The notes under the pieces are model-generated. The model was not told the DNA's origin. It did no database searches and saw nothing but the letters and a program-made list of their open reading frames with translations. A stretch of 64,000 bases of DNA from Candidatus Gastranaerophilales bacterium (lineage in GTDB: Bacteria > Cyanobacteriota > Vampirovibrionia > Gastranaerophilales > Gastranaerophilaceae), in NCBI GenBank assembly GCA_944323045.1, contig CALUQX010000008.1, positions 1 to 64,000 on the forward strand, given 5' to 3'. Of this stretch, positions 57,451 through 59,939 are shown piece after piece. Each line of letters starts with the position of its first letter. The stretch's first letter is position 1. Both the position numbers and the translations under genes were made by a program.

Positions 57451-58119
57451 TTAATCACATAATTTTTCGCAGTAGGTAAAGTAGTCAGTTCTGTCCCAGA
57501 TAATATTTTCTTTAACCTTTTTTGCAGGGACTCCGGCAATTATAATATTTTTTTCTTTAAATTTTTTATTCACAAGTGACATGGCACCTACAACAGAACC
57601 TTCTGCTATTTCAGCCCCTTTTAATATCATGGAGCGCGTTCCAACCCATACTTTATCCGCGATTTTAATATTCTCCGGAGCATTGATAATTTCTTTTGTT
57701 GTTGCATCTAAAATAGTATGTCCGTCGTCATTTCTGATAATAATATCTCTTGCAAACATACATTCATCACCAACATCAACCCTTCTGCCGGCTTTTGCAA
57801 CAACATTAAGATTTTTATAAACAGAAATTCCGCCGCCAAATGTGATTTTTCCGCCATGTTCCATGCCAAAAGTTGTATGTCTTATAAATCTGTGGCGTGT
57901 AGGTTTGATTGAGCAGTAATTTTCATCCCCGTTCATTACAATCGCTGTTCCGATAAACTTTGATGGCATTTCAATCAGTATCTGATTATTGTTGCCGGTA
58001 ATTGTAATAGACATACCTTTTATTTCACGGTATTCCTTTAATTCACCATTTTCCAGTATCTGAATTTTATTGTTTTCACCCTTAATTTTAACACCGGGAA
58101 TATTTGAATAATCACTCAT
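57451..58119 (-). CDS. Left-handed beta-helix (hexapeptide) acyltransferase
   Basis: 222 residues. A beta-rich N-terminal part (GMSITITGNNNQILIEMP) precedes hexapeptide repeats with KIADKVWVGTRSMILKGAEIAEGSVVGAMSLVNKKFKEKNIIIAGVPAKKVKENI, close to xenobiotic or sugar O-acetyltransferases of capsule and LPS gene sets. His in the middle (DDGHTI) may be catalytic. The start at 58119 follows GAGGTTTTT. It is upstream of the MCE gene, with a 57-nt gap. Confidence 0.86.
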   Translation of the reverse strand: MSDYSNIPGVKIKGENNKIQILENGELKEYREIKGMSITITGNNNQILIEMPSKFIGTAIVMNGDENYCSIKPTRHRFIRHTTFGMEHGGKITFGGGISVYKNLNVVAKAGRRVDVGDECMFARDIIIRNDDGHTILDATTKEIINAPENIKIADKVWVGTRSMILKGAEIAEGSVVGAMSLVNKKFKEKNIIIAGVPAKKVKENIIWDRTDYFTYCEKLCD

Positions 58120-58265
58120 AAAAACCTCAATTAATTTTAAAATCTGCATTATATTCTAGCCTGCATTTCCCTGCAATACATCATTTGAATAGTCTAAAAT
58201 CTTATACCTTTCGGGAATTTATTGCCAAAAATAAAATGCTAAAGTGTTTCTAAAAGGAGAAAATC

Positions 58266-58850
58266 ATGCTGACTGATGTTTTAAAATACTTTTCATTGTT
58301 CGTAATCTTTGCAATAATAATTGTTTTTTGTTCTAACAAAGCATCTGCAGAAGAAATACATTTTGACAACACTAAATATATATTAAAATACAGCATATAT
58401 AATCCGACATCACAAGGTTATATGAACGAGTATTTCCCTGCCTCAGAAAATCGTGCCAACTGGACAAAAATGATTGGTATATACTATTACATAAACGAAA
58501 AATCGCCAATAAAGTTCGCAAAAGAAATGGACAAAACTATTGAAACATCTGAAAACAGCGTCCTGATAAAATTTATCGAAAACAAAAAACAGGATAAAGC
58601 CGTTGTCAGTTTTCTCGTAAATAATACGGAAAATGGCAGAAATTACTTTGAATACAACGTTTATAAGTACGAAAAACACCCTGACAAAGGGACAATGATG
58701 CTTAAATATGCAGTTAAATATTTCTGTAATAATGATGAAGAAATAGCCGCAGTAGGTAATAAAATCCGTGAAGAAAACGATAAATATATGGAACAATTGA
58801 TAACTTCCCCAATTCCGCCTGTTGTAGAAAAAGAAATTAAAATTGATTAA
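58266..58850 (+). CDS. Secreted hypothetical protein, 194 residues
   Basis: Not recognised. A signal peptide runs to about residue 29 (FVIFAIIIVFCSNKASA|EE). The mature part is a mixed fold with many Tyr and Lys, ending PPVVEKEIKID. AAAGGAGAAAATC precedes the ATG. It stands alone, and the next gene is 500 bp away. It is periplasmic or exported; its role is unknown. Confidence 0.8.
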   Translation: MLTDVLKYFSLFVIFAIIIVFCSNKASAEEIHFDNTKYILKYSIYNPTSQGYMNEYFPASENRANWTKMIGIYYYINEKSPIKFAKEMDKTIETSENSVLIKFIENKKQDKAVVSFLVNNTENGRNYFEYNVYKYEKHPDKGTMMLKYAVKYFCNNDEEIAAVGNKIREENDKYMEQLITSPIPPVVEKEIKID

Positions 58851-59349
58851 TTGCAGAAACTACAATGCCGGAATGCAGAAGGAGCATAATAATTACGCAC
58901 AATTTAGCGTCAAGCCCGCACATTTTAGCATAAAAAAAACCACTCATTACTGAGTGGGTCGTTTTCTGCATCCTAATGGTCTCTTTTAGTGTTTATTATT
59001 TAGGAGTTTATATGTTTTGGGGTTAATGAATTCTATTTATATTTAGTGTTTCGACTACACTTAAATCTTATACATTTATTATGCACTAAAACAAAATGAT
59101 TGTCAATACACCTACTCAATATTTTTTTTGCAAAATGTCTCAAATGCCCATATAGTGTAGAATTTACACTTTACAAAACTTAATATTGTGTTAGGGATTA
59201 GTTTAATCAGGGTATATTAACATGCGCGGGAGGATATTTAATTAGATATTTTATGTTAACAAATGTTAATTAAATATCAAAGCAAAAGGCAATTTTAAAA
59301 CTTATATATACTTTATATATATAACGTATTTAAATAGGAAAAGTATATC
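58851..59349. other. 500-bp gap between secreted protein and small-protein operon
   Basis: No protein gene is supported. Besides the candidate RNA on the minus strand, the stretch 59107-59349 is AT-rich and must hold the plus-strand promoter for the operon at 59350; no clear box was picked out. Confidence 0.5.
58932..59071 (-). ncRNA. Candidate small RNA with consensus promoter and terminator
   Basis: On the minus strand, TTGACA (59101-59106) and CATAAT (59078-59083), 17 bp apart, would start an RNA near 59071. It would end at a hairpin CCACTCA/TGAGTGG (58940-58957, loop of 4) followed by eight U (58939-58932), giving about 140 nt. The inside has no good gene, a TCCTAA/TTAGGA pairing and an exposed ACUCCU stretch complementary to ribosome binding sites. 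It may be a trans-acting RNA. No conserved family was recognised. Confidence 0.5.
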
Positions 59350-59625
59350 ATGAGTTTCGGTAAAATCGACGCAATATACCGTGAAAAAACATTACCGGTT
59401 GAAGCAGTATCATTATACAGTAATATAAACAGCAAAGCATTAGATGCTGGAACGGTTGAAAACCCGTTTAAAGGGTCAGGAAACCTCGGATTGTTTATGG
59501 GCAGCGGTTATGATTTTACTACAGGCAATCAAAAATTCGGATATAACAATACTATCGGTTATAAGGTCGATCCGAACGATAATGTATTAAAGGAAATAAA
59601 CTCAACTCATGAATGGGTTGCATAA
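59350..59625 (+). CDS. Small hypothetical protein, first of a pair
   Basis: 91 residues, not recognised. It has no signal peptide and is rich in Gly, Asn and aromatic residues: NPFKGSGNLGLFMGSGYDF and TGNQKFGYNNTIGYKVDPN. AGGAAAAG precedes the ATG at a suitable distance. It is followed by the second small gene after 11 nt. The composition suggests a secreted or structural beta protein lacking a classical signal. Confidence 0.75.
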   Translation: MSFGKIDAIYREKTLPVEAVSLYSNINSKALDAGTVENPFKGSGNLGLFMGSGYDFTTGNQKFGYNNTIGYKVDPNDNVLKEINSTHEWVA

Positions 59626-59636
59626 GCGAGGTAAAC

Positions 59637-59939
59637 ATGCCAGCAGGTGACGATTTAAGAATAGGAAAAATAGCAGCAAATACAGATTCGTATTCCATGG
59701 GCATGGAAGGCGCAGACATTGGTGTTACTCCGCAAACTCTGCCGAATTCGGACTACAACAGCAATCGTACCAATTCTGTAAACAACAATACCGGATTTTT
59801 GAGGCTTACTTCCCAACATACTACAACACCGTTTGATTCTAAGGCATTTGACTTTACTTTCAGGGATGCCGGAGCTGTCGGGTTCAATCCATTTAACAAC
59901 AATCTTCCGGAAACCGCAACTAAACAGTTTATAGGATAA
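59637..59939 (+). CDS. Small hypothetical protein, second of a pair
   Basis: 100 residues, not recognised. It is Asn-, Thr- and Gly-rich (NSDYNSNRTNSVNNNTGF) with a C-terminal FDFTFRDAGAVGFNPFNNN part that echoes the NPF words of its partner. GAGGTAAAC-ATG sets the start at 59637. A terminator follows at once, so the pair is a two-gene operon. Confidence 0.75.
   Translation: MPAGDDLRIGKIAANTDSYSMGMEGADIGVTPQTLPNSDYNSNRTNSVNNNTGFLRLTSQHTTTPFDSKAFDFTFRDAGAVGFNPFNNNLPETATKQFIG

What the first reader, a model, noticed from the sequence alone, without database searches (positions are those of the whole stretch)
58932..59106. Intergenic RNA candidate with textbook promoter and terminator
TTGACA-17-CATAAT on the minus strand and a hairpin followed by eight U define an RNA of about 140 nt with no gene inside and none directly downstream on that strand. 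An ACUCCU stretch could pair with ribosome binding sites.
Basis: partly seen in the sequence, partly recalled or inferred. Interest (0 to 1): 0.65.

Follow-up and report, generated by a model that had tools for sequence, protein, structure and literature searches.

The report
Conserved small RNA of gut cyanobacteria
The window holds the gene for a small non-coding RNA of about 140 bases that, to judge from DNA comparison alone, is kept almost letter for letter across dozens of genera of gut-dwelling non-photosynthetic cyanobacteria, and no description of it turned up in our searches; what it regulates is still unknown.

Summary
TTGACA-17-CATAAT, a body of about 140 nt and a hairpin with eight U are at the stated places. 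The unit is found in 289 of 383 genomes of the order; named homologues are Candidatus Gastranaerophilales. The RNA is 95-98.6% identical between loci, a nearby enzyme gene 79-86% in 9 of 10. Promoter and terminator are kept, no reading frame is, and neighbours change. Rfam has no match. This is an undescribed small-RNA family.

Two corrections. ACUCCU is in 112 of 117 unique copies but missing from three distant families; the order-wide part is GAGACCAUUAGGAUGCAGAA. The 5' 'hairpin' looks at least as much like a DNA operator: AGTGT-N7-ACACT, fixed spacing in 116 of 117, usually a second copy 106-110 bp upstream, and the same motif before conserved genes.

Most likely a trans-acting regulatory RNA under an unidentified DNA-binding protein. 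Pairing with ribosome-binding sites is plausible, but my target test was weak.

The parts
58932..59071 (-). predicted small RNA, about 140 nt (start inferred from the -10 box, end from the U tract)
   Evidence: family alignment; 289 of 383 genomes
59101..59106 (-). -35 box TTGACA
   Evidence: TTGAC in 115 of 117 unique copies
59078..59083 (-). -10 box CATAAT
   Evidence: NATAAT in most copies
59045..59061 (.). palindrome O1, AGTGT-N7-ACACT, at about +11 to +27; forms a 5' RNA hairpin but behaves like a DNA operator
   Evidence: exact in 114 of 117 and 7-nt spacer in 116 of 117
59154..59170 (.). palindrome O2, AGTGT-N7-ACACT, 109 bp upstream of O1, overlapping the -10 of a predicted divergent + strand promoter
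   Evidence: second site at >=9 of 10 arm letters in 71 of 114 loci, 68 of these 106-110 bp away
58996..59014 (-). family-f1 segment CATATAAACTCCTAAATAA (antisense to a Shine-Dalgarno site plus start codon); ACTCCT at 59007-59002
   Evidence: ACTCCT in 112 of 117 unique copies, absent in families f5, f6, f7
58963..58983 (-). order-wide core GAGACCATTAGGATGCAGAAA
   Evidence: only one place in the own genome at up to 3 mismatches (20-mer)
58932..58957 (-). intrinsic terminator, 7-bp stem, 4-nt loop, eight U
   Evidence: 107 of 108 copies have a stem plus T tract, 29 distinct stems, 59 distinct loops
59127..59156 (+). predicted divergent promoter (TTTGCA/TTGCAA ... TATAGT) of the + strand operon
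   Evidence: consensus match only (9 of 12)
59350..59625 (+). divergent gene, 91-aa protein without Pfam match; followed by a second one, 59613-59939
   Evidence: a homologue of the 91-aa protein at the same side in L002 only

Best explanation
The locus is the gene of a trans-acting regulatory small RNA, a family of its own in the Gastranaerophilales. Shown by sequence: an own promoter, an own terminator, an ultraconserved non-coding body, no conserved neighbour. Inferred from sequence: its promoter sits between two operator copies (AGTGT-N7-ACACT) about 107-110 bp apart. A DNA-binding protein could silence it there, possibly by looping, together with the divergent operon and a small regulon. 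Inferred, weakly: the RNA acts by base-pairing. The A-rich region holds CCCC (variable) and ACUCCU in family f1, which can cover the ribosome-binding site and start codon of mRNAs. The core GACCAUUAGGAUGCAG, shared by all families that have the RNA, is a second seed or a protein-binding site.
For: DNA-level conservation in 39 of 59 relatives and 289 of 383 genomes of the order. RNA 95.2-98.6% identical against 79-86% for the nearby aminotransferase gene in 9 of 10 loci (98.5% in the tenth). Promoter 115 of 117, terminator 107 of 108 with changing stems and loops. Downstream nearest gene on the other strand in 57 of 97 loci, same strand 29, none 11, so not a leader. Neighbours differ. Operator: 96 sites against 10 for the reversed control in 21 genomes, 36 of 46 examined sites outside ORFs over 100 aa against 16% of random places, paired sites at 106-110 bp in 68 of 114 loci. 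No Rfam family; 6S RNA lies elsewhere.
Against: No expression data. ACUCCU is missing in families f5, f6 and f7. Folding predicts ACUCCU only 43% unpaired, with CUCCUAA pairing to UUAGGA. Pairing with 724 gene starts is only about 1.2 to 1.5 sd better than 30 shuffles. The best target, a 13-bp complement at a start codon, is kept only in a sister genome. The Pfam Hfq model finds nothing in this genome (Synechococcus elongatus is not in the list of controls that ring either). In a 762-kb sample of the own genome the operator is not clearly over-represented (2 sites; mean 0.73 for permuted arms).
Confidence: 0.6

Rival explanations
1. The RNA does not pair with mRNAs; its invariant core GACCAUUAGGAUGCAG binds one protein (or the ribosome) and the RNA titrates or scaffolds it, as 6S or CsrB-type RNAs do.
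For: The core is the only internal body segment kept across families f1, f5, f6 and f7; it has no complement in the own genome at up to 3 mismatches over 20 nt; target test weak.
Against: Only one GGA in the core, so not a typical CsrA sponge (recalled motif); no protein partner known.
Confidence: 0.25
2. It is a cis-acting leader or attenuator: the core can pair with the 3' arm of the terminator and the U tract, giving an antiterminator.
For: Folds of L074 and L076 pair AGAGACCAUU with the terminator arm; 29 of 97 loci have a same-strand gene next downstream.
Against: 57 of 97 loci have an opposite-strand gene next, 11 none, so no consistent downstream gene. The alternative pairing is broken in copies with other terminator arms (L025, L030; read by eye).
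Confidence: 0.05
3. It encodes a small protein.
For: ATGCAG is invariant in most copies and opens a 44-aa frame in the window.
Against: 96 different peptides from that frame over 108 copies, the frame runs through the terminator, longest sense ORF varies from 1 to 31 aa.
Confidence: 0.03
4. Only DNA matters: the region is a pair of operators for the divergent operon, and the RNA is a by-product.
For: Paired operators at constant spacing; a regulon-wide motif.
Against: The body downstream of O1 and the terminator are conserved far beyond the operators; the divergent genes are not conserved.
Confidence: 0.06

Closest known systems
Yfr1 (cyanobacterial small RNA; PMC2190773, passages read)
   Same: 5' hairpin, unpaired region with ACUCCU, 3' terminator hairpin; near-universal in its group; ACUCCU suited to pair with ribosome-binding sites
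   Different: Yfr1 is 54-69 nt with ultraconserved ACUCCUCACAC. Here about 140 nt, ACUCCUAAAUAAUAAACAC, no ACTCCTCACAC anywhere in the own genome, and three families of the order lack ACUCCU
RsaE/RoxS-type C-rich small RNAs of Firmicutes (recalled)
   Same: single-stranded C/U-rich seeds against Shine-Dalgarno sequences, conserved over a large group
   Different: no sequence relation shown; the Rfam searches give no match
6S RNA (RF00013)
   Same: independently transcribed, widely conserved RNA
   Different: a 6S candidate is found elsewhere in this genome, C14:31178-31356, 39.4 bits, below the gathering score of 46.4
Promoters enclosed by two operators, such as gal in E. coli (recalled)
   Same: two like palindromes about 110 bp apart on both sides of a promoter
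   Different: the palindrome is AGTGT-N7-ACACT with an odd centre; the protein is unknown; looping is not shown

Membership tests
Yfr1 | ultraconserved ACUCCUCACAC in the unpaired region | tested here: not met
   definition from PMC2190773 passages
Yfr1 | length 54-69 nt | tested here: not met
   about 140 nt between predicted start and U tract
Yfr1 | 5' stem-loop, unpaired middle, 3' terminator stem-loop | tested here: inconclusive
   5' and 3' elements present; the middle is predicted partly paired and the 5' element may be an operator
6S RNA (RF00013) | match to the covariance model | tested here: not met
   no match here; the genome's 6S candidate is at another place
any Rfam 15 family | gathering-score match | tested here: not met
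   window scan finds only a tRNA; 561 bases at E up to 10 give only chance-level matches
riboswitch or leader RNA | conserved same-strand gene directly downstream | tested here: not met
   opposite-strand gene next in 57 of 97, same strand 29, none 11
trans-acting small RNA (general kind) | discrete transcript with own promoter and terminator | tested here: inconclusive
   both signals present and conserved; the transcript itself cannot be tested here
trans-acting small RNA (general kind) | base-pairing with mRNA targets | tested here: inconclusive
Hfq-dependent small RNA | Hfq present | tested here: inconclusive
   PF17209 finds nothing in G000, but Synechococcus elongatus is not among the controls that ring either

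The most novel reading that the evidence does not exclude
An order-wide regulatory RNA forms the RNA arm of an unknown transcription regulon of gut cyanobacteria. Its promoter is held in a repression loop between two AGTGT-N7-ACACT operators about 107-110 bp apart. An invariant core is kept everywhere, while one family has added an anti-ribosome-binding-site module (ACUCCU) that the other families lack: a case of a small RNA gaining a seed.
Probability: 0.25. Interest if true: 0.68.

Novelty: new member of a known kind. Interest (0 to 1): 0.52.

Why it matters
Searches for Gastranaerophilales or Melainabacteria with small-RNA terms found no paper whose listing points to a described small RNA of this order (PMC open-licence papers only, listings seen). 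A gene this conserved and this common in gut bacteria, with no name and no Rfam model, is a ready marker for metatranscriptomes and a way into the regulation of a group with few genetic tools (the last point recalled). The paired operators point to a regulator whose targets include DAHP synthase and BipA/TypA (names recalled from sequence, not scanned) and a set of small proteins of unknown function.

Tried and rejected
Small protein: rejected, frames not conserved. Leader or riboswitch: rejected for lack of a consistent downstream gene. 6S RNA: found elsewhere. Known Rfam family: none. Phage origin: pattern absent from the viral contigs (0 stretches). Multi-copy mobile element: matches cut at contig ends first suggested repeats, but in G062 and G245 the two pieces are the upstream and downstream parts of one copy. 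I read this as assembly breaks caused by sequence shared between species; a real second copy in G067 (L080, L081) is possible, as is a mixed bin. Helix CUCCUAA/UUAGGA: predicted in family f1 but invariant there, so no covariation; the CUCCUAA partner is absent in families f5 and f6; a different partner run in L073 and L077 is only marginal (P 0.07 and 0.04 of 2000 shuffles, three others 0.24-0.89). Antiterminator pairing: seen in folds of L074 and L076 only, of 12 copies folded. Target prediction: 762,100 bases of the own genome plus the window, 724 gene starts; mean duplex energy -12.3 against -11.5 (sd 0.54, 30 shuffles), best twenty -23.0 against -21.9 (sd 0.96), so not convincing. AGGAGTTT occurs at 8 gene starts but is only fourth among AGGAGNNN there. 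Pattern TTTAGGAGTTTATATG with up to 3 mismatches: 41 places against 84 for the reversed control. My hand-drawn register of the 5' hairpin was wrong by some columns; the model R1 uses another drawing, taken.

Full report
What is there. On the minus strand the window has TTGACA (59106-59101), a 17-nt spacer, CATAAT (59083-59078), and about 120 nt further a 7-bp stem with a 4-nt loop followed by eight T ending at 58932. The inferred RNA runs from about 59071 to 58932. The promoter is the best of 16 promoter-like sites in 4 kb, but the number of such sites is what shuffles give, and the folding energy is only mildly low (z -2.08), so a single sequence does not settle it. Downstream lies a + strand gene (58266-58850, convergent); the next large minus-strand ORF is at 57451-58149.

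Conservation. A DNA search of relatives hit 39 of 59 genomes. An alignment of the 30 fetched loci shows one unit: promoter, AGTGT-N7-ACACT, a variable linker with insertions of many lengths, CATATAAACTCCTAAATAATAAACAC, AGACCATTAGGATGCAGAAAAC, terminator. A covariance model finds it in 289 of 383 genomes of the order, 240 of 306 of good quality, 35 of 52 genera. In a phylum-wide sample, 144 of 386 genomes and 25 of 142 genera matched, all from the window's own family except one of family f6. Both searches used strict filters. Several genera have no match in the rows listed (g21, g26, g50, g3, g55); real loss or divergence cannot be told apart. Viral contigs: none.

It is RNA rather than protein. 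In ten loci the RNA is 95.2-98.6% identical to the window's, while the aminotransferase gene about 1 kb away is 79-86% in nine and 98.5% in the nearest. Of 170 loci scanned, 168 have the core at up to one mismatch; 149 of these have at least 100 nt upstream, 117 unique. Of the 117, 115 have TTGAC in place, 112 have ACTCCT, 114 have an exact AGTGT-N7-ACACT. Of the 108 with enough downstream sequence, 107 have a stem followed by a T tract, with 29 stems and 59 loops; a few of these automatic stems look spurious, and the one miss, L154, has a stem with a mismatch. The ATGCAG frame gives 96 peptides over 108 copies. The nearest downstream ORF is on the opposite strand in 57 of 97 loci, on the same strand in 29, absent in 11.

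ACUCCU is not the most widely kept part. Copies from families f5, f6 and f7 (L073-L077; 5 copies) keep promoter, palindrome, core and terminator but have no ACTCCT. A search of family f6 found the RNA in 3 of 4 genomes. In f1 it reads as the exact complement of a ribosome-binding site plus start codon. Two genomes of genus g9 have UUAAGA in place of UUAGGA, which puts a mismatch into the predicted CUCCUAA/UUAGGA helix (L078, L079).

The 5' palindrome as an operator. The spacer is 7 nt in 116 of 117 unique copies although its letters vary (23 spacers). A second palindrome with at least 9 of 10 arm letters lies upstream in 71 of 114 loci, in 68 of them 106-110 bp away; shuffled sequence gives about 0.2 of 114. 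In the window it is 59154-59170 and overlaps the -10 of a predicted divergent promoter. Over 21 genomes the pattern occurs 96 times against 10 for the reversed control, 45 against 2 in the window's genus (my sums of its rows); these counts include the sites at the RNA itself, and related genomes are not independent. In the own genome alone it occurs 8 times against 0, but in a 762-kb sample it is not clearly enriched (2 sites, mean 0.73 over 30 permuted arms). I fetched 40 further sites in relatives (chosen from those listed, the ones at the RNA left out) plus the 6 own sites not at the RNA: 36 of 46 lie outside ORFs over 100 aa, against 16% of 1000 random places. The sites stand before the same genes in several genomes: a 91-103 aa protein of the MITINPVKFNT kind (9), a protein beginning MKINSIHY (6), a DAHP synthase (6), a BipA/TypA-like GTPase (4) (the last two names are recalled from sequence, not scanned). 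An RNA hairpin with a fixed 7-nt loop is still possible and both could be true.

How it may work. Known from sequence: an independent, strongly conserved transcription unit. Inferred: a DNA-binding protein at O1 (about +11 to +27) and O2 (about -83 to -99) encloses the promoter and could loop the DNA; the signal is unknown. Inferred and weak: base-pairing in trans. For 724 predicted gene starts the mean duplex energy was -12.3 kcal/mol against -11.5 (sd 0.54) for 30 shuffled RNAs. The best start-codon complement (13 bp, before a 188-aa protein) is nearly kept in the sister genome G004 but not in the other homologues. Accessibility is not ideal: ACUCCU 43% and UAGGA 11% unpaired on average over 101 copies. 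The protein-binding alternative therefore stays open.

Known relatives. No Rfam family matches. Yfr1 of photosynthetic cyanobacteria is the nearest in anatomy, but its defining ACUCCUCACAC is absent from this RNA and from the whole own genome, and this RNA is about twice as long. A 6S RNA candidate is elsewhere. Papers: searches for Gastranaerophilales with 'small RNA' and 'sRNA', Melainabacteria with 'noncoding RNA', and a mixed search returned nothing whose listing describes a small RNA of this order (listings only; the mixed search showed 10 of 855).

Verdict. A real and undescribed small-RNA gene (about 0.9 that a discrete RNA is made), a new family of a known kind; mechanism only partly supported.

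Noticed in passing
window 59045-59061 and 59154-59170; L093-L100, L317-L356: AGTGT-N7-ACACT looks like the operator of an unidentified regulator with a regulon shared across genera (small MITINPVKFNT proteins, MKINSIHY proteins, DAHP synthase, BipA/TypA-like GTPase).
   Followed up: partly
window 59350-59625 and 59613-59939 (+): Divergent small proteins without Pfam match; in other loci different small proteins stand at the same place next to the conserved aminotransferase.
   Followed up: partly
G000:C14:31178-31356 (L032): A 6S RNA candidate scoring 39.4 bits, below Rfam's cut-off of 46.4, in this order.
   Followed up: no
G062 C17/C18, G245 C2/C4, G022 C6/C30: Metagenome assemblies often break inside this RNA gene, probably because its sequence is shared by co-resident species.
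   Followed up: partly
L334: A 142-aa protein beginning MKNLSYSQEDYLEEIYNQ (DtxR/MntR-like by recall) starts 377 nt from one operator site in G004; a possible but untested candidate for the regulator.
   Followed up: no
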